Shown one piece after another: positions 37,411-53,947 of a stretch of DNA of 64,000 nucleotides. Both the position numbers and the translations under genes were made by a program. The DNA comes from Bdellovibrio bacteriovorus (GTDB lineage: Bacteria > Bdellovibrionota > Bdellovibrionia > Bdellovibrionales > Bdellovibrionaceae). Each line of letters starts with the position of its first letter. Position 1 is the stretch's first letter. The stretch is from contig NZ_LUKE01000004.1 in NCBI RefSeq assembly GCF_001592735.1, positions 153,514-217,513 of the forward strand, in the 5' to 3' direction. The notes beneath the pieces were generated by a model, which saw nothing but the letters and a program-made list of their open reading frames with translations, was not told the DNA's origin and ran no database searches.

Positions 37411-40254
37411 TTAAAGCATAGGAATTTTGTAGATGGTCTTTCTTTGTGTCCCTAGGTTTTCGCAATAAACCACAAAACTAGACTCACCACCTTGCACCAT
37501 CGGATTTAAAGCCGTGCAACTGTCGCCGATCTGCAAGCTATTGCCAATCGCCGGGACAAATGAACCCGCCGTTGATGAAAGAGTGTAAGCGTGGCCGCGA
37601 TACAACTGTGATGAATCAATGTACAGACCGATCTGACCCTTGATACGAATCGGGGCGAACAGATCTGTAAATACGCTGCTACTTAGAACACTGGAGCGGT
37701 TGATGGGGCTTGTCGTCAGTGTCTTTTTGCCCGAAGAATCAATCAGCAATGAATTTACTTGGGTCTTTGTTTCCACCAATAGTCGCACGCCGCCGTTTTC
37801 ACCTGAAGCCGTGAGGGCGCCGATAATGTTGTCCCCCTTTTTCGGGTGAACGTAGGAATAGAACTTCGGCGTGTTTAAACCTTGAATCCAAGCAAACTCA
37901 ATGATGCTTGAAGATTGGGTGCGGCTCATGAAAAAGCTATCTGAAGATGAATCCAAACCCGGTTGGCGCACCATTTGGAAGCCTTGCAAGTTAAACTGAC
38001 CTGAAATACGCGCCAGTTTTTTTGTTGCGGCATTATCACCGATACGAAGCTGATAATAGCGCGCGCCCGAATTTCCACCCACAACTTCAACAAGAACTCT
38101 TGCTTCACCTTGAGCTATTTCAGTCAGTGACGGAGGGAACATCAGTTTGATCAGCATGCGCTCGGGATATTTTACTCCTGCCGAAGAACCTAATTGCTTC
38201 ATCGTTTTAAAGGTATCAAAACTGCGAAGTTCGAAGGATTTTGTCTGGGCATTCGGGCGATAGAAGTAAATACGGTTGGTCACCGCTTGATCGTTAGAGT
38301 CTTCAAACGGATCTTTATTGCGATCTGCGGGAACCACTTGGCCTTTAAAGATATATAAAGGCACAAGCATGCGTTGGCCTTGATAGTTCATGCCCACCCA
38401 CGCCATTTCGCGCCAGTTGGGCATGGCCAAAGTTGCGTCGTAAGTGAAAAAAGGCGTGTTGAACAAAGGCTTTAAATTTGAATTTAAATACCAAAGCTTA
38501 AAGCTATTATCGCCTTTAAGAGTATTATAACTTTGCATTAAGTAATCGGCTTTGCCGTCGCCGTTGAGATCCATCTTGATAAGATTTAAAACGGTTTCAC
38601 CGCGATCTAAATCTAAAGTGGTCGGAAGCAAGCGATTGTCTGAAGCGCGCATCAAAGTGAGGAAATACTTTTCGCCTTGGGACGAAATAAAGAAATACTC
38701 AGACTCGTCTGTTTTTTTAAAGCTGTTCTTTACGGTTTGGGGGCGAAGTTTGGTCAGTTCGCGATCCATTTTGATTCCCGAAAGATCAAAATCAAGACCG
38801 GCTAAGTTGGAGGTCACTGGAGTCACAGTTTTAACCAAAGTTTTAGAAAAGCTATAGTTGCTGACCTTAGCACCTTCAGTGACTTTAAGTTTCACCGTGA
38901 CCACGTGATTTTGCGCGGAGCCGTTGATTTGCCCCGCGATTTTGATCACTTCGGTTTGCCCCTCGGCCAAGCTGGGCAAAGTGAACTGGGTGGCAGTTAA
39001 AGTCACATTTTTGGAAACCTCTAAATCTAAAGCGATAGCCCCTGAAGCCTTCCAATAGTTTTTAACGGCGAATTGCAATTCAAAAGCACCATTATCGCTG
39101 ACACTAATCATTTGCTCGCCCTTAAGAACGGGGAAAACAGCCGACTGCGGAGCCACCTCTAAAGACTTATCAATTTGGATAAGGCCGTTGATAGCCGAAA
39201 CCACCGTGGGGCGGGGACGCGAGGATATAAATAAGCGCGCTTTTAATTCATCCGTCGTTGCTTCCGGCAAAACGGATTTTAAAACGGCAAAAGCCGCCGA
39301 AACAAACGGAGTCGCTTGGCTGGTCCCACTTTTAAAATCATAGCCTGTCACTGAAAACTGGCTAGGGCTCATTTGGGTGGGGATCAAAGAAAGAATATTA
39401 GATCCCGGTGCTAAAAGATCCACGTGACTGCCGAAATTTGAAAACATCGAAAGCTGACTGTCAGGGCGAATAGAGCCCACGCACACCACGCCTTCATAAG
39501 AACAGGGATAAATGGGTTTTTCGGTCGTGTTGTTGCCGGCCGCAACAACGATGATCACTCCGCGCTCTAAGGCTTCTTTGATTTTCTTTTGTAAAGACGC
39601 CGTGTCCGCAGCGGCGGGCCAACCTAATGAAAGATTGATCACGTCGGCCTTCATATCTAAAGCGTATTGCAGCGCTTTAAGCATGCGCGTGGTGTAACCC
39701 GCACCTTGGTCGCCTCGGAAGGTAAGCTTAATAGGTAAGATCTTCACTTTCGGAGCGACACCCGAAATGCCGACACCGTTGTTTTCAATGGCTGCGATGA
39801 TCCCTGAAACGTGGGTTCCGTGACCAATATCATCGTTGACGCGATTTTCATCACCGTTTCCGGAGACGTTCCAACCCATGCAATCGCCCGCATAGCCGTT
39901 ACCGTCTTTATCAAGTTCACTTCTAAACGGGGGACGGCCTAATGAGTCACAATCTGCACTGTTAAGAAAAATACGGTCTTTAAGGTCGGGATGATTGACG
40001 TCAACACCGGAATCGATCACCGCCACTAAAACTTCACGTTTGCTATCGTTCCAGTTTAAAGCCGCGGTTTTCACGCGGCCCACGTCAACCCCTAAGACAC
40101 CTTGAACCTTTTCGTATTCAACATCCGTCAATGCTTCATTGACGGATTGACCGCTGTTAAGCACGCCCCATTGGAGGTTTTTTAAAGGATCATTTCCTAC
40201 GGCCCAGCCTTGCGATAAAAAAAGGCTTGTAATAAGCGCAAGCACGGATCTCAT
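37411..40254 (-). CDS. Secreted subtilase (S8) with C-terminal repeat region
   Basis: 947 residues. Signal peptide (1-18). The peptidase domain runs to about residue 340, with catalytic Asp81 (AVIDSGVD), His145 (GHGTHVSG), the oxyanion Asn region (VVAAGNNT) and Ser312 (SGTSQATP). Disulphide-type Cys pairs occur (SADCDS, GDCMGW; PCSYEGVVCVG). The following 600 residues contain an Ig-like segment (about 370-480) and an FG-GAP/VCBS-like calcium motif (DLNGDGKADYL). Calcium loop DKDGNG near residue 115. No propeptide inhibitor domain is obvious. Overlaps the upstream 1028-residue gene by 4 bases (ATGA), so the two are co-expressed. An extracellular or periplasmic protease is inferred. Confidence 0.9.
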   Translation of the reverse strand: MRSVLALITSLFLSQGWAVGNDPLKNLQWGVLNSGQSVNEALTDVEYEKVQGVLGVDVGRVKTAALNWNDSKREVLVAVIDSGVDVNHPDLKDRIFLNSADCDSLGRPPFRSELDKDGNGYAGDCMGWNVSGNGDENRVNDDIGHGTHVSGIIAAIENNGVGISGVAPKVKILPIKLTFRGDQGAGYTTRMLKALQYALDMKADVINLSLGWPAAADTASLQKKIKEALERGVIIVVAAGNNTTEKPIYPCSYEGVVCVGSIRPDSQLSMFSNFGSHVDLLAPGSNILSLIPTQMSPSQFSVTGYDFKSGTSQATPFVSAAFAVLKSVLPEATTDELKARLFISSRPRPTVVSAINGLIQIDKSLEVAPQSAVFPVLKGEQMISVSDNGAFELQFAVKNYWKASGAIALDLEVSKNVTLTATQFTLPSLAEGQTEVIKIAGQINGSAQNHVVTVKLKVTEGAKVSNYSFSKTLVKTVTPVTSNLAGLDFDLSGIKMDRELTKLRPQTVKNSFKKTDESEYFFISSQGEKYFLTLMRASDNRLLPTTLDLDRGETVLNLIKMDLNGDGKADYLMQSYNTLKGDNSFKLWYLNSNLKPLFNTPFFTYDATLAMPNWREMAWVGMNYQGQRMLVPLYIFKGQVVPADRNKDPFEDSNDQAVTNRIYFYRPNAQTKSFELRSFDTFKTMKQLGSSAGVKYPERMLIKLMFPPSLTEIAQGEARVLVEVVGGNSGARYYQLRIGDNAATKKLARISGQFNLQGFQMVRQPGLDSSSDSFFMSRTQSSSIIEFAWIQGLNTPKFYSYVHPKKGDNIIGALTASGENGGVRLLVETKTQVNSLLIDSSGKKTLTTSPINRSSVLSSSVFTDLFAPIRIKGQIGLYIDSSQLYRGHAYTLSSTAGSFVPAIGNSLQIGDSCTALNPMVQGGESSFVVYCENLGTQRKTIYKIPML

Positions 40255-43200
40255 AACGCCTCCAAAAACCAGTTGGTGAAGAGCTCAGACTCGGTAATGC
40301 CGATCTTGCGTTTAAGGCCGGTTAAAGGACCCATTTGATTCACACTGCCGATTTCACCGTAAGTGTTTGAAACAAATGTTTGATCGCCAGCCTCGTCACC
40401 TTCGCGGAAACCCGTTAAAGTGGTGTAGGCAAAGATATTGTTTTTGCCAATAAGCTCACCAATTTTAGCAATCGGCAAACGCTGCTCCAGCGTGCCAAAG
40501 ACCTGCATGACGTTGTAAGAATAATCATCAAAGTTATTGTGCTTATTGCTCCAACGCAGTTTTGAAATCTGATTAATCAAGGTCTGAATATTAGATTCTG
40601 GTACTCCCGCGGCTTGCAGCATCTTTTGCATGCGCGTGACGTTGACTTGCAGTTGTTCAATACCGCGTTCATAGATCACAAACGAAAGTTGGATGTTGTA
40701 AAGACGTAACACTTTAGTGTCACGTAACGCCATCTTAGAAAATAAATTCTGACCGGCTTTATCATTGATCTCGCCAATGATTTTTTGGATCTTTTTTTGA
40801 TCCGCCGACCAGCCCTTGTAACGATAGTTGATTTTTAAAACTTCATCTTGAGGAACTGCGACGTCGCTATCGCTTTTATAGCGATCTAGTTGTGCTTCAT
40901 AGTCCAAGATGCGTGAATAAGACGAACCACCGATAGTATCGCCTGGGTTTGAACCCCCGATGCGGCTGAGTGAAATGTCTTTATCGAGTTTTGCTTTCAC
41001 CACGGCCGTAGCCACGTCTAAAGCAAAGTCTTGATAGTTTTTACCCGAACGAGTGCCGCGCACGCGTTTTTGGTAATCGCGAGTTTGGCCCGTTGGCGCT
41101 TCAATAGAGATAATGCCGTTACGCGATTGCCATTTCCATTGATAAAAAAGCAGGTTTGCCGTGGCGCTGTTAGCGGCGGTATCGCCTTTCAGTACAAAAG
41201 GCTTTTGCACGTTTTCTAAAGCCTCAATGGATCCCCACCGGAAGGCTTGGGCCAATGCCTGAATTTGGGACAAGCTATTCCGATCTTCTGGCGTGGCACG
41301 CAAAGGGACAGAAAAGAATTTTGTTTTAGTAAATCCACGGAAATGCTCTAGGCCCAAAGATAATACCGAAGCTTGCAGACTTAAATCAAAGGACAGATTT
41401 AAATCAATCGCGTTGCCGACACCACGATACACCTGGATCGTGTTTTCATCGGAACGTAAGATATGAATGCGCGAAAGAATATACTGTTGCGCGGTGAAAG
41501 AGGCATAAGCACTCAAGTCGATGCCAACAGAAGTCTTTGTACCATATCCGATACCCGCGCCCAAAGAAGGACCCACGGAATCAGTAATAATAAAAGATTC
41601 GCCCACCGCTAAATTGTCTTTAAGTTTAGAAATACCTTCTTGAAAGGCTTTTTTTCCCTCTTCAGTTTCAAGATCTTTGATTGTTAAATCATTTAAGGAT
41701 TCAATGTGCGCCGCCATTTGGTTGCGCACGGTCGGAACGATCATGTTTTTAAAGGGTTGTTTTAAGGCCAGCTCTAAACTTTTCACCGGCGTGATGTGAG
41801 AATAAGTGCGGGTCACGGATGCCGATGCGGTGATGTTTCCTTGAAAACCATCCGGCAAACCGTAAACGCTAAAGTAGGTACCTAAAGTGATATTAGCCCC
41901 GATAGAGTCCACCGCTGAAATGATGTTGTCTGAGCCCATATAGCTGCCGGTCACAATATCGCGATTTAAAATAAAGCGATATTTACCAAAAGGGACCGCG
42001 TCTAAAGCATAGGTTGAGCTTTGAGTTTGTCCCGTGGTGATAAGTGATTTTATATCATTCACAATGCGATCTTGGATTTTGGTTGAAAGTTTAGCACCAA
42101 TATCGGTACCGCTTAAAAGGCGTTTATTAAATTCATTCACCAGATTTTGAATCACACCTGACTGCAATTGCGCGCGCGCCAGCAACGTCATCTGAGAAGA
42201 GTTTAGCGGGCTTGAGGGATCCCCAAATGCAAAACGTGCCGAATACCCGGGCCAATTGTCTTCATAGACTTTCGTGATTTTACCGTTTTTAAGGACGGTG
42301 CCAGAGCTAATGCTTGGGTTCACCGCCAAATCAGGGACTTTATACTTAAATAACTTCATCAATGAATTACGGCGAGCCACGATTTTTTCAGTCGCCAGCA
42401 TCCCCACTTCTTTGGGGAATTGGGCAAACTGAACGACTTCGACAAGATCTTGACGAGTTAATCTTGCGAGACGACGAACCATCCACAAAGCGTCTTCATA
42501 ACTTGTAGAAAAAGTGGACTGCCCCGTACCGTCGCTAGATTCGGTGTCTAATTGGATGTTGTTATTAAATACCGAACCAATTTCCCAGTTAAAAAGATTC
42601 ACGCTTTCTGGCATTTGCACTAAAGCATACGGAATCACCAAGCTGTTTAAGACACGGCGACCGGCGATGATTTCTGCTGGGATCGTTCCATAAGCAAGGC
42701 TGTAATTTTCAAACTGTGCTGGAACGGCAACCACGTCTTGTAAAATTAAAAAACTTTCAGCCTCGCTGCCGCCAACAACAAAGCGCTCTTTGGCGCCGGC
42801 GGTTTTCGTGCGCAGTTGTAAGATAAAGTCTTCGGCCTCAAGAGAGGAATTAAATTTTACACGCACTTTTTTAAGATATTTGATGGGGTCTAAACGATAG
42901 CCCAATTTTCTTAACAAGGCGTCTCTTAAAAGAACGTCGTGCACGGTGCGGGAAAGATTGAATTGGATGGCTTGTCGGCCCTCGGCCGTTTGCACGTACC
43001 CGTTAAAGCGGAAATTTCCTAAACGCGAAGACGATAGAGAGTCAAATTGCACCTCATCCGCTTCCGTGATTGGTAAAGCGCGAGGCGTGGCTTTTTCTGG
43101 CATCCACAGTTGCGAAGGGGCCGGGTTGTATTGGCTGATGTCTTGGCCCGCATTGCGTTGGTCTTGCAGGGTTTGAACGGGAAGTGGTTCGTTTTCAGAA

Positions 43201-43337
43201 GTGACGAGATCTGTGGCCGGAATGGACTTATTGCCGATATAGATACTGGTCGTAGAAATCTGGGTTTGTCCGTGAGCCCATAACGAGGAAAAGCTCAACA
43301 CACCTAAAACTAACAGTTTTTGACCCAATTTTCCCAT
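40251..43337 (-). CDS. Large secreted protein of unknown function, coupled to a subtilase
   Basis: 1028 residues with a signal peptide (about 1-23, cleavage after AHG) and no later membrane helix. Predicted mostly beta with helical parts; segments such as GAGIGYGTKTSVGIDLSAYASF and NLSFDLSLQASVLSLGLEHF look like alternating outer-membrane or lipid-transfer strands. There is no cysteine-rich or repeat pattern. I do not recognise a family. It shares a 4-base overlap with the subtilase gene, and a strong sigma-54 site lies 51-66 bases upstream. A surface or envelope role with the protease as partner or processor is a guess from context. Confidence 0.75.
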   Translation of the reverse strand: MGKLGQKLLVLGVLSFSSLWAHGQTQISTTSIYIGNKSIPATDLVTSENEPLPVQTLQDQRNAGQDISQYNPAPSQLWMPEKATPRALPITEADEVQFDSLSSSRLGNFRFNGYVQTAEGRQAIQFNLSRTVHDVLLRDALLRKLGYRLDPIKYLKKVRVKFNSSLEAEDFILQLRTKTAGAKERFVVGGSEAESFLILQDVVAVPAQFENYSLAYGTIPAEIIAGRRVLNSLVIPYALVQMPESVNLFNWEIGSVFNNNIQLDTESSDGTGQSTFSTSYEDALWMVRRLARLTRQDLVEVVQFAQFPKEVGMLATEKIVARRNSLMKLFKYKVPDLAVNPSISSGTVLKNGKITKVYEDNWPGYSARFAFGDPSSPLNSSQMTLLARAQLQSGVIQNLVNEFNKRLLSGTDIGAKLSTKIQDRIVNDIKSLITTGQTQSSTYALDAVPFGKYRFILNRDIVTGSYMGSDNIISAVDSIGANITLGTYFSVYGLPDGFQGNITASASVTRTYSHITPVKSLELALKQPFKNMIVPTVRNQMAAHIESLNDLTIKDLETEEGKKAFQEGISKLKDNLAVGESFIITDSVGPSLGAGIGYGTKTSVGIDLSAYASFTAQQYILSRIHILRSDENTIQVYRGVGNAIDLNLSFDLSLQASVLSLGLEHFRGFTKTKFFSVPLRATPEDRNSLSQIQALAQAFRWGSIEALENVQKPFVLKGDTAANSATANLLFYQWKWQSRNGIISIEAPTGQTRDYQKRVRGTRSGKNYQDFALDVATAVVKAKLDKDISLSRIGGSNPGDTIGGSSYSRILDYEAQLDRYKSDSDVAVPQDEVLKINYRYKGWSADQKKIQKIIGEINDKAGQNLFSKMALRDTKVLRLYNIQLSFVIYERGIEQLQVNVTRMQKMLQAAGVPESNIQTLINQISKLRWSNKHNNFDDYSYNVMQVFGTLEQRLPIAKIGELIGKNNIFAYTTLTGFREGDEAGDQTFVSNTYGEIGSVNQMGPLTGLKRKIGITESELFTNWFLEAL

Positions 43338-43536: not shown

Positions 43537-44262
43537 TTAAAGGCGGTCAAATTCGTTGCGATAAAGAACGAAAGTTTCAAAACCATTGGTCACGATGGCA
43601 GAGCGAATCTTGAGCGTAGCGCCTTGGTGTTTATAGGTATCGAGGTCCGCAGAGCTGGGCAAGATCGTGCCCGCAATATCGCCATAGGGATTTTTAAAAA
43701 AGAAAGGGTGGTTGTGGATGTGAGATTCGACGTTCCAACCTTGTTTGCGATAACCCTCTACTAAATTCATCACCGGGGTGTCGGCCACGGTTCCGTTTTT
43801 TAATTGGGTGTAAATCACGACGGTCGCTTGATCCGAATCAAATCTTGTTAGGACGTAGGCTGAAAATTCAGTTTCTGAAGAGAAAGTTCTTAAGTGATTG
43901 TCTAAAAGAAAGTTTTCTAAGCAAGACACTTGTCGTGGGCGACCGACTTTTTTAGCAAGGGCCTTGTTAAAGCGTTCCGTTTCTTTCGGGAATTTTTTAA
44001 AAAATGGTTTTTGGCGCTCTAATAGATATTTGAAATCTGTTTTTGTGCGTTCTTGGACTTTGCGTTTAAAGTGAGCGGCGTAGTTGAACTGGGAAGAAGT
44101 ACTTAAATCCGCTAAAGAGCTTTTCGGCACGGACAAAACATCATAATAGGTCCCTTGCTGAAACTTCTCATAGGATTTTGCGCGCACCGGGATCTCACAA
44201 GCCGCTTGTGCGGTTTGGATACCTGAAGCGATCAACATAAACCCTAAGAAAGCCTTTAACAT
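43537..44262 (-). CDS. Secreted protein with RadC/JAMM-like metal motif
   Basis: 241 residues from ATG 44262 (AAGGAG upstream). Signal peptide (1-20, cleavage after AQA). The C-terminal half contains SHIHNHPF (His183, His185) and PSSADLD (Ser203, Asp206), which together look like the JAMM/RadC zinc motif HxHP...SxxD, but with about ten extra residues between the two parts. JAMM proteins are isopeptidases; bacterial exported ones are rare. Alternatively the fold is retained without activity. Predicted sigma-54-like site at 44289. Confidence 0.65.
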   Translation of the reverse strand: MLKAFLGFMLIASGIQTAQAACEIPVRAKSYEKFQQGTYYDVLSVPKSSLADLSTSSQFNYAAHFKRKVQERTKTDFKYLLERQKPFFKKFPKETERFNKALAKKVGRPRQVSCLENFLLDNHLRTFSSETEFSAYVLTRFDSDQATVVIYTQLKNGTVADTPVMNLVEGYRKQGWNVESHIHNHPFFFKNPYGDIAGTILPSSADLDTYKHQGATLKIRSAIVTNGFETFVLYRNEFDRL

Positions 44263-44288
44263 CGTGGGACTCCTTAAGGGATAGATCA

Positions 44289-44382: not shown

Positions 44383-44416
44383 AAAAAGGACTGTCGAAAG
44401 TTTCGACAGTCCTTTT
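44383..44416 (-). terminator. Terminator of gene 44444
   Basis: AAAGGACTGTCG, loop AAAGTTT, CGACAGTCCTTT. The left A-run reads as a T-run on the minus strand; it may also work on the plus strand. Confidence 0.85.
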
Positions 44417-48270: not shown

Positions 48271-48466
48271 TAATGTTAAATGACAGAAAATACCTTAAAT
48301 GGAAATCATGCATAATTCTGTCTCATGGCAAATGAAGATCATGTAATTGTGCGGCTCGTTGAATGATTAAGAGGAAGTAATCTTCGATTTTTTTGTACCA
48401 CAGTAAATGCCCCCGCCATTCTAATATTTGCTTATACGCATATGCATTTTTTTAATGGAGGCCCTC

Positions 48467-51400
48467 GTGGCGAAGATGGACGTTACGTCAGATAAAGCAA
48501 CGCAGAAAAAAGTTCCAAAGAAATTTAAAAAAATCGCGGAACAAAAACAGCCAGCGCTGAACCTGAAATCAATTCACAAAAAAGCTCCCTCCCTTTTGAG
48601 TATCGACAATGACGACCTGATGGTTCCCTCATTTGATAGCAAAGAACAATTAAGACAGCTTCTCTTCACCATCAAAGCCGTGCGGCGCGGTGAATTCAAT
48701 GTGCGTATGCCCATCGGAAACGAGGGGATCATCGCCGAAATCGGTGAAGTCCTAAATGACATCATCGAAATGAACGAAAGCATGGCCAATGAATTCGTGC
48801 GCGTACGAAGCACCGTTGGTCAAGAAGGTAAGATGAACGAACGTGTTTCTATGGGCTCTGTTAAAGGAGCATGGGCGACAAGTGTCGATTCAATCAACTT
48901 ACTAATTGGAGATCTTGTTCAACCTACTCAAGAAGTCGCCCGCGTTATCACCTCGGTGGCTAAAGGGGACTTGTCACAAAAGATGTCCTTAGAGATCGAT
49001 GGGCGCACGGTTAAAGGTGAGTTCTTCCGTATCGGAACTACGGTGAATGCCATGGTGGATCAGCTCAACTCGTTCGCCTCAGAGGTGACTCGTGTGGCAA
49101 AAGAGGTGGGTACCGAAGGAAAACTCGGCGGACAAGCTGACGTTCGCGGAGCTTCAGGTATTTGGAGAGATCTCACCGACAACGTAAATAACCTTGCCGG
49201 AAACTTAACGGACCAGGTTCGTAATATCGCCAAAGTAACCACCGCCGTTGCTAAAGGCGACTTATCACAAAAAATCACGGTGGATGCCAAAGGCGAGATC
49301 TTTGAATTAAAAAACACCATCAACGTCATGGTGGATCAGCTTTCATCCTTCGCCGCCGAGGTGACTCGTGTGGCAAAAGAGGTGGGTACCGAAGGTCGTC
49401 TGGGCGGTCAAGCGGACGTAAAAGGGGTTTCTGGTACTTGGAAAGATTTAACAGACAACGTCAATGGTCTGGCGAATAACTTAACAGCCCAAGTTCGTAA
49501 CATCGCAAAAGTAACCACGGCCGTTGCCAATGGCGACTTGTCACAAAAAATCACCGTGGATGCTCGTGGCGAAATCTTAGAACTTAAAAACACCATCAAC
49601 GTCATGGTGGATCAGCTGAATTCATTTGCGGCCGAGGTGACTCGTGTGGCGAAAGAAGTAGGTACCGAAGGTCGTCTGGGCGGACAAGCCGACGTGAAGG
49701 GTGTATCTGGTACTTGGAAAGATTTAACAGATAACGTCAATGGCCTAGCCAACAACCTGACTGCTCAAGTGCGTAACATCGCCAAAGTAACTATTGCGAT
49801 CGCCAATGGCGACTTGTCACAAAAAATCACCGTTGATGCCCGCGGCGAAATCATGGAGCTTAAAGACACCATCAATACGATGGTGGACACACTTCGTTCT
49901 TTCGCGACGGAGGTCACTCGTGTGGCAAAAGAAGTGGGTACCGAAGGAAAACTGGGTGGTCAGGCTGATGTAAAAGGTGTGGCGGGTACGTGGAAAGATC
50001 TGACTGACAATGTGAATGGTCTTGCTGGAAACCTCACCGCCCAAGTGCGTAACATCGCCAAAGTGACGACCGCGGTTGCTAATGGCGACTTGTCACAAAA
50101 AATCACGGTGGATGCTCGCGGAGAAATCTTGGAGCTGAAAGAAACCATCAACGTCATGGTGGATCAGTTGAACTCGTTTGCGGCCGAGGTGACTCGTGTG
50201 GCGAAAGAAGTGGGTACTGAAGGAAAACTGGGCGGACAAGCCGACGTTAAAGGTGTATCTGGGACTTGGAAAGATCTTACCGACAACGTCAATGGTCTTG
50301 CGGCGAACTTAACAGCTCAAGTGCGTAATATCGCGAAAGTAACCACCGCCGTTGCCAAAGGCGACTTATCACAAAAAATCACGGTGGATGCCAAAGGCGA
50401 AATCTTTGAATTAAAAAATACCATCAACGTCATGGTGGATCAGCTTTCATCCTTCGCCGCCGAGGTGACTCGCGTGGCAAAAGAAGTGGGTACTGAAGGA
50501 AAACTGGGCGGACAAGCGGACGTTAAGGGTGTGTCTGGAACTTGGAAAGACTTAACAGATAACGTCAACAGCCTGGCGGGGAACTTAACGGCCCAAGTTC
50601 GTAACATCGCCAAAGTAACCACGGCGGTCGCAAAGGGTGACTTGTCACAAAAAATCACCGTGGATGCTCGTGGCGAAATCTTTGAATTAAAAAATACCAT
50701 TAACGTCATGGTGGATCAGTTAAACTCGTTTGCGGCGGAAGTAACTCGCGTTGCAAAAGATGTTGGTACTGAAGGAAAACTGGGCGGACAAGCGGACGTT
50801 AAAGGTGTGTCTGGAACTTGGAAAGACTTAACGGACAACGTAAACAGCCTGGCACGTAACTTAACAGACCAAGTTCGTAATATCGCCAAAGTAACCACCG
50901 CCGTTGCCAAAGGCGACTTATCACAAAAAATCACCGTTGATGCCAAAGGCGAAATCTTAGAACTTAAAAACACCATCAACGTCATGGTGGATCAGTTAAA
51001 CTCATTTGCGGCGGAAGTAACTCGTGTCGCTAAAGAAGTAGGTACTGAAGGCAAACTGGGCGGACAAGCGGACGTTAAAGGTGTGTCTGGAACTTGGAAA
51101 GATCTGACCGACAATGTGAATGGTCTTGCCGGTAACTTAACGGCGCAAGTTCGTAACATCGCCAAAGTAACCACGGCCGTGGCAAAAGGTGACTTATCAC
51201 AAAAAATCACCGTGGATGCTAAAGGTGAAATCTTAGAAGTAAAAAACACGATCAACTCCATGGTGGATCAGTTAAACTCCTTCGCCGCCGAGGTGACTCG
51301 CGTAGCGAAAGAAGTAGGTACGGAAGGCCGTCTGGGTGGACAAGCCGAAGTGCGCGGTGTTTCGGGTATTTGGAAAGACTTAACCGACAACGTGAACGTC

Positions 51401-53947
51401 ATGGCCTCAAACTTAACTAAACAAGTTCGCGGTATCGTGAAGGTCGTAACTGCCGTTGCCAACGGGGACTTAAATCAAAAATTCGTTCTTGAAGCCAAAG
51501 GGGAAGTGGCGGCGTTAGCTGAAACGATCAACTCCATGACCGACACTCTGCGCACGTTTGCCGATCAAGTAACAACGGTAGCACGTGAAGTAGGTATCGA
51601 AGGGAAACTCGGTGCCCAAGCGCACGTGCCGGGGGTTGCGGGAACATGGAAAGATTTGACCGATAATGTGAACGTCATGGCCTCAAATCTTACCAAACAA
51701 GTTCGCGGTATCGTGAAAGTCGTAACCGCGGTAGCTAACGGAGACTTGAATCAAAAATTCGTTCTTGAAGCCAAAGGGGAAGTGGCGGCGTTAGCTGAAA
51801 CCATCAATACGATGACCGACACTTTGCGTACGTTCGCCGATCAAGTCACCACGGTGGCTCGTGAAGTGGGTATCGAAGGGAAGCTGGGCGGTCAGGCGAA
51901 AGTTCCAGGAGCATCGGGAACGTGGAAAGATTTGACCGATAACGTCAATCAGCTGGCGGGGAACTTAACCGCGCAAGTGCGGGCGATTGCGGAAGTGTCA
52001 ACGGCGGTAACAAAAGGGGATTTAACTCGTTCGATCTCGGTAGAGGCCGAAGGCGAAGTCGCGGCGTTATCAGAGAATATCAATCAAATGATTTCGAACT
52101 TAAAAGACACGACTCAAAAAAACAACGAGCAGGACTGGTTAAAAACCAACTTGGCGAAGTTTTCGGGCATGATGCAAGGTCAAAGAAGTATCACTTCGGT
52201 GGCGCAGTTGATTATGTCGGAACTTACGCCGTTAGTCGACGCTCGTCAGGGTACATTCTTTATGTTGGAAACGGAAAAAGGCGAGCCCACGTTAAACTTG
52301 ATTGCAAGTTATGCGTTCACCGAGCGTCGTTCTGTTTCTAATAAGTACAAATTAAAAGAAGGTCTGGTCGGACAGTGCGCTTTTGAGAAAAAACGCATCT
52401 TGCTGACAAGTCCTTCTGACGACTACGTCATGATCACTTCAAGCATTGTGGAAGAAAAACCCCGCAATGTGATCGTGCTTCCGGTTCTGTTTGAAGGAGA
52501 GTTGAAAGCCGTTATTGAACTGGCTTCGTTAACACCATTTACTCAGAACTATATCAACTTCTTGGATCAGTTGATGGATTCCATCGGCGTTATCTTGAAT
52601 ATGATTTCGTCTTCGATGAGAACCGAAGAACTTCTGCAAGAATTGAAACGTTCCAATGCGGAACTCGAAGCCCAAGCCAAAGAGTTGGAAGAAAAAGCCA
52701 AACTTCTGGAAGTCAAAAACCAAGAGGTGGAGCTGGCCTCCCGCTCACTGGAAGAAAAAGCCGAACAGTTGTCGCTTATCTCGAAGTACAAATCGGAATT
52801 CTTGGCGAATATGTCCCACGAGTTACGAACGCCGCTTAATAGCTTGCTGATTTTATCTAAGACGTTAGCTGAAAACCGAGATAAAAACTTAAGCGGAGAG
52901 CAAGTGAAGTTTGCCAGCACCGTGCATTCGGCCGGTCAGGATTTATTAGCCCTTATCAATGAGATCTTGGATCTATCCAAAGTCGAAGCGGGTAAAATGC
53001 CGGTCAATCCCAAAGCCGTGTCCGTTAAAGAAGTGCATGAGTACTTGGAGCAAACGTTCCGTCCGGTGGCGGAACATAAAGGTCTGGAATTCCATATCTC
53101 CGTGGGGGATGCGATTCCGAAGGCCATCTTTACCGATGAAAATCGTTTGCATCAGATTCTAAAAAATCTTTTGTCGAATGCCTTTAAGTTCACCGATAAA
53201 GGACAGGTTTTGTTAGACATTGCGACGAAGAAAAACAGCGTGGTCTTTAAAGTGACTGATACCGGTATTGGTATTCCTCAAGAAAAACAAAAACTGATCT
53301 TTGAGGCCTTCCAACAGGCCGATGGTACGACCAGCCGTAAATACGGTGGTACGGGCCTGGGCTTAACGATCAGCCGCGAAATTGCTCGCTTGTTGGGTGG
53401 TGTGATCGAAGTGGAAAGTCGCCCGGGCGAAGGCAGTACGTTCACTTTAACGTTGCCGTTTAAATACACGGGCCCGGATGCCAGCCTTTCAACGCAAGTG
53501 GAAGAGCAAATCGAAGTAAGGCCGCTGCCAACGGATGCCGACTTTAGCGGGCGTAAGGTTTTGATCGTGGATGATGACGTTCGTAACGTGTTTGCACTTT
53601 CCAGTGTTTTAAAGATGCGCGGTATGAATGTGATATTTGCCGAAAATGGCAGACAAGGGATTAAAGCTTTAGAAGAAAATCCAGATACAGATCTGGTATT
53701 GATGGATACCATGATGCCAGAGATGGATGGATTAGAGGCGACTCAAGAAATTCGCAATAATCCGCGGTTTGCAAAACTTCCGATCATCTCGTTAACGGCG
53801 AAAGCCATGAAGGGTGATCGTGAGAAGTGTTTAGCGGCGGGGGCGTCCGATTATGTCACCAAACCTGTTGATGAGGCGTACTTATTGGCGGTGATGTATT
53901 CTTGGCTTCCGCGCGGTGAAAAAGCAGGAACATTAAGCCTGCAATAG
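48467..53947 (+). CDS. Soluble poly-HAMP hybrid histidine kinase
   Basis: 1826 residues from GTG 48467, five bases after GGAGG (48457-48461); ATG 48476 is an alternative. No membrane segment. Order: basic N-terminus, divergent HAMP units (about 60-205), eleven tandem 92-residue HAMP repeats (207-1218), GAF domain (about 1240-1385), coiled coil, HisKA with His1451 ([11 protein letters not shown]), HATPase ([23 protein letters not shown]), and receiver with Asp1747 (LVLMDTMMP). The layout parallels fungal group III (Nik1-type) osmosensing kinases, where the HAMP chain is the sensor. It heads an operon with another hybrid kinase. Confidence 0.93.
49085..52120 (+). repeat. Eleven tandem 276-bp repeats encoding HAMP units
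   Basis: Each unit begins [12 protein letters not shown] and ends [11 protein letters not shown] or similar, exactly 276 bp with no indels. Units 1-8 are near-identical in protein (units 5-8 differ at a handful of positions); units 9-11 diverge ([20 protein letters not shown]). Each 92-residue unit probably folds as a canonical plus a divergent HAMP module. Confidence 0.95.

What the first reader, a model, noticed from the sequence alone, without database searches (positions are those of the whole stretch)
43537..44262. Exported protein with a split JAMM/RadC-like zinc motif
HNHP (His183/His185) followed by PSSADLD (Ser203/Asp206) copies the RadC/JAMM ligand pattern but with about ten added residues, in a protein with a clear signal peptide. 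An exported JAMM-type isopeptidase would be unusual in bacteria and could act on envelope or foreign proteins.
Basis: partly seen in the sequence, partly recalled or inferred. Interest (0 to 1): 0.55.

Follow-up and report, generated by a model that had tools for sequence, protein, structure and literature searches.

The report
Exported JAMM-like enzyme of Bdellovibrio relatives
A Bdellovibrio-type bacterium carries a small protein with an export signal that is predicted to be built like the zinc enzymes which cut ubiquitin off proteins inside cells; it belongs to a rare, unannotated family shared with myxobacteria, and what it cuts is unknown.

Summary
The 241-aa product of 43537-44262 (minus strand) has a signal peptide and H183-N-H185-P...P-S203-S-A-D206, with 17 rather than 7 residues between H185 and S203. 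The missing Glu is E132.

Divergent homologues occur in 14 of 368 genomes of the phylum; a pattern-limited contig scan gave 12 loci, 5 Bdellovibrionota and 7 Myxococcota. In 21 aligned members E132, H183, H185, S203 and D206 are invariant. AlphaFold2 gives a confident model (pLDDT 86, pTM 0.85). The 50 PDB entries shown for it are JAB/MPN proteins or MPN-containing complexes, led by RadC and PfJAMM1 (some chains by recall). Foldseek alone is weak (E 0.016).

No Pfam, NCBIfam, PHROGs or PADLOC model reaches a cut-off; Toxin-JAB1 is nearest, sub-threshold. No conserved partner gene was found.

Best reading: an exported zinc JAMM hydrolase, most likely a peptidase acting in the envelope or on prey. 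Residue conservation and fold are well supported; zinc, activity and substrate are inferred. It is a new exported branch of a known superfamily.

The parts
43537..44262 (-). coding sequence of the 241-aa exported JAMM-fold protein (stop included)
   Evidence: ribosome-binding site
44270..44275 (-). AAGGAG ribosome-binding site, 7 nt before the ATG at 44262
   Evidence: read directly from the sequence
44203..44262 (-). signal peptide, residues 1-20 (MLKAFLGFMLIASGIQTAQA)
   Evidence: hydropathy scan; cleavage site by eye
44197..44199 (-). Cys22, near the start of the mature chain; proposed disulfide partner of Cys114
   Evidence: 16 of 21 members have both cysteines (the N-terminal one is uncertain in L060 and L065); 3 have no cysteine in the mature chain
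43921..43923 (-). Cys114 (in the CLE motif), proposed disulfide partner of Cys22
44125..44148 (-). first strand of the JAB sheet, residues 39-46 of the full protein
   Evidence: DSSP of the AlphaFold2 model; that it belongs to the JAB sheet is inferred: most aligned ranges begin at its end
43957..44085 (-). three-helix subdomain, residues 60-102, between the first strand and the first JAB helix
   Evidence: model secondary structure; same order of elements in the Archangium member
43867..43869 (-). Glu132, predicted general base (JAMM Glu)
   Evidence: invariant 21 of 21; just before a strand in the model
43708..43716 (-). His183-Asn-His185, predicted zinc ligands
   Evidence: H183 and H185 invariant 21 of 21; end of a strand in the model
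43657..43707 (-). 17-residue segment between His185 and Ser203 (canonical 7), with F187 and G198 invariant
43645..43656 (-). Ser203-Ser-Ala-Asp206, predicted oxyanion Ser and third zinc ligand
   Evidence: S203 and D206 invariant 21 of 21; start of a helix in the model
44384..44416 (-). terminator-like hairpin between the upstream 93-aa ORF and this gene, suggesting that the gene starts its own transcript
   Evidence: 15 pairs; but 3 terminator-like sites found against a shuffled mean of 1.7 (sd 1.6), so weak

Best explanation
The gene encodes an exported single-domain enzyme of the JAB/MPN (JAMM) superfamily. After Sec export and signal cleavage the mature chain is probably closed by a Cys22-Cys114 disulfide. 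It folds as a JAB core with a three-helix subdomain after the first strand. One zinc is expected on His183, His185 and Asp206. Glu132 would activate the metal-bound water and Ser203 would steady the transition state, so that an amide bond is hydrolysed. The longer loop between His185 and Ser203 and the helical insert would shape a substrate site unlike the ubiquitin-tail groove. The most likely use is as a peptidase or isopeptidase in the periplasm, at the outer membrane (the myxobacterial forms look like lipoproteins) or in prey. Supported by computation: family, invariant ligands, fold, export signals. Inferred: zinc, catalysis, bond type, disulfide, place of action, substrate.
For: E132, H183, H185, S203 and D206 are invariant in 21 of 21 rows although identity to the window protein is only 21-33%. 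AlphaFold2 model pLDDT 86, pTM 0.85. VIA-align: RadC 2qlc Z 8.7 (rmsd 3.2, 115 aligned), PfJAMM1 5ld9 Z 8.1 (3.0, 109), AMSH 3rzu Z 7.2 (3.6, 118); the 50 entries shown are JAB/MPN proteins or complexes that contain MPN subunits, the chain being placed by recall where the title does not name it. The Archangium member gives nearly the same list, Z up to 7.5 (one row, 2kks, I could not place). Ligands sit where JAMM ligands sit: Glu at a strand start, HxH at a strand end, Ser/Asp at a helix start (comparison recalled). The RadC profile aligns the motif above all 30 shuffles. Export: hydrophobic N-terminus in 20 of 21, lipobox in 5 of 5 full-length myxobacterial rows (4 by pattern, L020 by eye), paired cysteines in 16 of 21 (two uncertain).
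Against: Foldseek alone is weak (best E 0.016; Archangium model best E 0.087, with unrelated-looking proteins mixed in), and blasticidin S and cytidine deaminases stand among the Foldseek rows. Z of 7 to 8 is what models without a clear match also reach (notes), and the Archangium model has no row at Z 8 or more. The RadC profile match covers 25 columns with hhalign probability 40%. Three of 21 members (L021, L057, L058) have a longer S-to-D spacing. L060 shows no clear signal peptide. No Pfam JAB model matches above its cut-off. Toxin JAB and RadC domains have been proposed to be nucleases, not peptidases (PMC3482391 and PMC5512222, passages). Only one family member has a Pfam-confirmed neighbour that hints at a cell-wall pathway (L015).
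Confidence: 0.6

Rival explanations
1. It is an antibacterial toxin enzyme related to Toxin-JAB1, released against competitors or prey, and its JAB core acts as a nuclease or other toxin activity rather than as a peptidase.
For: The only Pfam hit is Toxin-JAB1, E 0.0041; 3 of 14 members hit it at E up to 1, and 1 of 11 in a second set. Zhang et al. argue that Tox-JAB domains do not conserve the ubiquitin-tail tunnel and might be nucleases (PMC3482391, passages). The family was found in two phyla known for predators (predation recalled) and is patchy: 2 of 24 genomes of the genus, own genome counted.
Against: Below the Pfam cut-off (18 against 21 bits). No RHS or other delivery part: the 21 members are 236-298 aa (some starts set by hand). 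No conserved neighbour that could be an immunity gene was seen, though immunity genes may differ from locus to locus. The Tox-JAB-1 NxxxE signature is present in only 2 of 21 (by eye).
Confidence: 0.2
2. It is a housekeeping envelope enzyme of the producer, for example one that trims peptidoglycan peptides or lipoprotein-peptidoglycan links, and has nothing to do with prey.
For: L015 has a YkuD_2 L,D-transpeptidase gene ending 3 nt before the JAMM gene. The myxobacterial forms look like lipoproteins, which would hold them in the cell's own envelope. Both Archangium loci have a 786-aa ORF that looks like a penicillin-binding protein 1C some genes upstream (named by eye, not scanned).
Against: A Pfam-confirmed cell-wall neighbour was seen in one locus only, among the 19 neighbour proteins of 20 scanned that I could compare, and the Archangium synteny is within one genus. 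A housekeeping gene should not be missing from 22 of 24 genomes of the genus.
Confidence: 0.3
3. It is an inactive JAB fold used as a binding or structural module.
For: Many MPN proteins are non-catalytic (recalled; for instance CSN6 and EMC subunits among the matches).
Against: All five catalytic residues are invariant in 21 of 21 at low overall identity.
Confidence: 0.05

Closest known systems
JAB/MPN (JAMM) metalloenzyme superfamily: PfJAMM1, AMSH, Rpn11, BRCC36
   Same: predicted fold, invariant E, HxH, S and D
   Different: exported; three-helix insert after the first strand; 17 instead of 7 residues between the second His and Ser; not matched by any Pfam JAB model above cut-off
RadC (PF04002)
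   Same: best structural match (2qlc, Z 8.7; tied with PfJAMM1 at 8.1); HNHP and PSxxD spelling; profile match above 30 shuffles
   Different: RadC is cytoplasmic (recalled); here there is a signal peptide and no PF04002 match; the same genome has its own separate RadC-domain gene
Toxin-JAB1 (PF15659, Tox-JAB-1)
   Same: nearest Pfam model, sub-threshold; JAB domain predicted to act outside the producing cell
   Different: stand-alone, no RHS part, no conserved neighbour seen, NxxxE in only 2 of 21; Tox-JAB-1 was reported only from Bacteroidetes (PMC3482391, passages)
Tox-JAB-2 / DUF4329, including secreted viral versions
   Same: JAB domain with E, H[ST]H, S, D, some versions secreted (PMC3482391, passages)
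   Different: no Pfam hit to it here

Membership tests
JAB/MPN (JAMM) superfamily | JAB/MPN fold | tested here: met
   AlphaFold2 models of two members; the 50 VIA-align entries shown for the window model are JAB/MPN proteins or MPN-containing complexes, some chains placed by recall; Z 8.7 at best, and Foldseek alone weak
JAB/MPN (JAMM) superfamily | Glu, HxH, Ser and Asp active-site set | tested here: met
   E132, H183, H185, S203 and D206 invariant in 21 of 21
Canonical JAMM motif EXnHS/THX7SXXD | exact spacing X7 between HxH and S, and SxxD | tested here: not met
   X17 in the window protein; SxxD spacing kept in 18 of 21. The spacing is not fixed in the wider superfamily: two loci over the Prok-JAB cut-off have X9 (counted by eye)
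JAMM metalloprotease | zinc binding and hydrolysis of a peptide or isopeptide bond | not testable with these tools
   needs purified protein
RadC (PF04002) | match to the RadC profile | tested here: not met
   no PF04002 hit for the window protein in a scan with E up to 10
Toxin-JAB1 (PF15659) | score above the gathering cut-off | tested here: not met
   18 against 21 bits
Toxin-JAB1 (PF15659) | C-terminal tip of a large RHS-type protein | tested here: not met
   236-298 aa in all 21 members (some starts set by hand)
Toxin-JAB1 (PF15659) | neighbouring immunity gene | tested here: inconclusive
   no conserved neighbour among 20 loci and the window, but immunity genes can differ between loci and Imm65 was not searched
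Exported proteins | N-terminal signal peptide or lipobox | tested here: met
   20 of 21 by hydropathy scan; L060 is the exception; no dedicated predictor was available

The most novel reading that the evidence does not exclude
A family of JAMM isopeptidases that works outside the cytoplasm and has left the ubiquitin world: bacterial predators export it (or hold it on the cell surface as a lipoprotein) to cut amide cross-links in prey envelopes, such as peptidoglycan cross-bridges or lipoprotein-peptidoglycan bonds.
Probability: 0.15. Interest if true: 0.75.

Novelty: new variant of a known kind. Interest (0 to 1): 0.5.

Why it matters
The prokaryotic JAB domains known before the polymorphic-toxin survey were described as intracellular and mostly tied to ubiquitin-like proteins (PMC3482391, passages). 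A conserved exported branch with an intact active site and no toxin architecture would show that this zinc site has been recruited for work on the envelope or on other cells. It also gives Bdellovibrio and myxobacteria researchers a concrete, unannotated exported-enzyme candidate, testable with one knock-out and one purified protein.

Tried and rejected
Sequence search of PDB chains with the single protein gave five chains, led by fungal lectins (E 0.00018, no stretch passing on its own); with the 14-row profile nothing was below E 0.38. Both were rejected as chance. The viral structure library gave one match at E 0.0013 (unnamed protein A0A2I7RIA6, TM-score 0.27/0.37), not followed. NCBIfam, PADLOC and PHROGs gave nothing. 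Plasmids and phages gave no match; viral contigs gave one locus, L032, whose contig may be bacterial. PF15659 in 144 genomes of the phylum and 14 control genomes rang nowhere, so that search says nothing about absence.

The downstream 1028-aa protein and S8 subtilase were considered as partners and rejected: the 1028-aa family occurs in 22 of 29 genomes, of which only G000 and G005 have the JAMM gene. A cell-wall link through the L,D-transpeptidase next to L015 was Pfam-confirmed once only. The other neighbours scanned (20 proteins in all, 5 of them from the window) showed no common theme. The gene tree joins the window copy to L015 (97/95) and the other same-genus copy to G035 (100/99), but 9 of 18 inner branches are below 80 and many rows are long, so no transfer is claimed.

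Paper searches: JAMM with Bdellovibrio (11 of 12 papers listed), JAMM/secreted/RadC (15 of 166), Bdellovibrio with deubiquitinase (1 of 1), JAB domain with signal peptide (1 of 1), RadC/JAB/nuclease/MPN (12 of 79), Myxococcus/JAMM/isopeptidase (10 of 335). By title and start of abstract none of the listed papers describes such a family; this covers open-licence PMC papers only, and only the rows listed.

Rows dropped before counts: the fragment L024 and the truncated L026 were left out of the 21-row alignment; proteins fetched twice (by genome search and by contig scan) were used once. L060's and some other start codons are uncertain.

Full report
The finding is a 241-aa ORF at 43537-44262 on the minus strand. 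The ATG at 44262 is preceded by AAGGAG at 7 nt (sequence). The chain starts with a signal peptide and contains only two cysteines, at positions 22 and 114.

Known profile libraries hardly see it. Pfam gives only Toxin-JAB1 at 18 bits (cut-off 21, E 0.0041); NCBIfam, PADLOC and PHROGs give nothing. Scanning 14 members, 3 touch Toxin-JAB1 at E up to 1; in a second set it is 1 of 11.

Homologues were found by genome search, the window's own genome counted: 5 of 99 and 14 of 368 genomes of the phylum. With a 14-row profile 6 of 140 genomes of the order match. Within the genus it is 2 of 24. A scan of the genome-contig collection (84,980 species by its description), limited to one peptide pattern, gave 65 pattern matches and 12 confirmed loci: 5 Bdellovibrionota and 7 Myxococcota, namely Hyalangium, Pyxidicoccus, Archangium (2), Polyangium (2) and an uncultured Myxococcales. 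The family is thus rare and patchy; other phyla are not excluded, because only that one pattern was searched. L017 encodes the same protein as L002, from a 'same family' genome, and is titled Bdellovibrionaceae (Pseudobdellovibrionaceae), so the window is very likely from a Bdellovibrio relative (inference).

In an alignment of 21 members, with identity to the window protein of 21-33%, nine columns are invariant: E132, H183, H185, F187, G198, S203, D206, N226 and G227. That is the complete JAMM set (E, H, H, S, D) plus four others. The HxH-to-S loop is variable: 17 residues in the window protein and 28 in the Archangium member (positions H189 and S218). Three members (L021, L057, L058) also have a longer S-to-D spacing, which is the main irregularity.

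Two AlphaFold2 models, without templates, were made from window and the search for related loci proteins only. The window protein (mature part) has pLDDT 86.0 and pTM 0.85; the Archangium member has 89.7 and 0.87. Both show a first strand, a three-helix insert and a short strand, then helix, strand, strand, helix, strand ending in HxH, helix starting at SxxD, strand, strand. Foldseek against the PDB is weak in E-value (best 0.016, RadC 2qlc); its five best rows for the window model are RadC (two chains), COPS5, PfJAMM1 and a chain of an EMC complex (an MPN subunit by recall), and deaminases follow from row 8. VIA-align gives RadC Z 8.7, PfJAMM1 Z 8.1, the BRCC36-KIAA0157 complex 7.4 and AMSH 7.2. 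The 50 entries shown are JAB/MPN proteins or complexes that contain MPN subunits (proteasome, COP9, eIF3, EMC, Npl4); where the title does not name the chain I placed it by recall. The second model gives nearly the same list with Z up to 7.5 and one row (2kks) that I could not place, while its Foldseek list is mixed, best E 0.087. Z of 7 to 8 alone would not be decisive; the uniform list together with the ligand positions is the argument. At sequence level, the family profile aligned with a RadC profile from 13 genomes (own genome included) exactly at HNHP...PSxxD, score 32.1 over 25 columns, probability 40%, against at most 19.1 in 30 column shuffles.

Export is supported by three observations. 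The hydropathy peak lies at the N-terminus in 20 of 21 (some starts were set by hand, L060 is the exception, L065 is marginal). The five full-length myxobacterial members carry a lipobox (four by pattern, L020 by eye). Cysteines come in pairs: 16 of 21 have both the C22 and C114 equivalents (the N-terminal one uncertain in L060, and possibly a lipobox in L065), 3 have no cysteine in the mature chain, and L018 and L059 have other cysteine combinations. Related rows are not independent, so no probability is attached.

The gene appears to stand alone. An all-against-all comparison of ORFs around 20 loci and in 35-52 kb of the window found the JAMM protein as the only family common to the distant loci. 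Between distant loci there were four other matches, each joining two loci only: L015 with L020 (162 aa, 52%; cytochrome-like by eye, over 5 kb from the L015 gene), L019 with L065 (50 aa), L016 with L057 (38 aa) and L021 with L023 (126 aa, 30%). The two Polyangium loci share further neighbours, and the myxobacterial rows also match each other in shadow frames of the gene. A terminator-like hairpin lies upstream, in a scan where the number found is within chance. One locus, L015, has an L,D-transpeptidase gene (YkuD_2, E 8.8e-44) ending 3 nt upstream. This is a hint at cell-wall work, Pfam-confirmed once.

In the literature, Zhang et al. 2012 (PMC3482391, passages read) describe two toxin JAB clades, say that prokaryotic JAB domains known before were intracellular, and argue that the toxin clades might be nucleases. 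A later paper makes a similar argument for RadC (PMC5512222, passages). The present family shares the predicted fold and the five residues with these, but is stand-alone, has no conserved partner that I could see and falls below the Toxin-JAB1 cut-off. I therefore file it as a new exported branch of the JAB/MPN superfamily and not as a member of Toxin-JAB1 or RadC.

What is supported by computation: a conserved family, invariant JAMM residues, a JAB fold in two models, export signals in most members. What is inferred: zinc, catalysis, peptide or isopeptide bond, disulfide, envelope or prey substrate. I put about 0.85 on 'exported JAMM-fold metallohydrolase' and about 0.6 on the full statement given as best explanation.

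Noticed in passing
48428-53947 (+): A 1839-aa histidine kinase with response-regulator part carries a long array of 276-bp (92-aa) HAMP-like repeats, 8.5 copies at 82% match plus further copies; the domain names are by eye.
   Followed up: no
37411-43337 (-): An S8 subtilase gene (PF00082, E 1.3e-56) whose start overlaps the end of a gene for a 1028-aa exported protein without any Pfam match; the 1028-aa family is found in 22 of 29 genomes, own included.
   Followed up: partly
L015 5203-6672: A YkuD_2 L,D-transpeptidase gene ends 3 nt before the JAMM-family gene, a possible operon.
   Followed up: partly
L026 5983-6381: In Archangium lansinium the JAMM-family gene is cut short at its 5' end: the open frame lacks the Glu132 part, so it is either decayed or misassembled.
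   Followed up: no
L062 985-3207: A 472-aa protein with a hydrophobic N-terminus and no Pfam match ends directly before the JAMM-family gene, another possible operon.
   Followed up: no
L022 620-2980 and L026 1625-3985: A 786-aa ORF that looks like penicillin-binding protein 1C lies some genes upstream of the JAMM-family gene in both Archangium loci (named by eye, not scanned).
   Followed up: no
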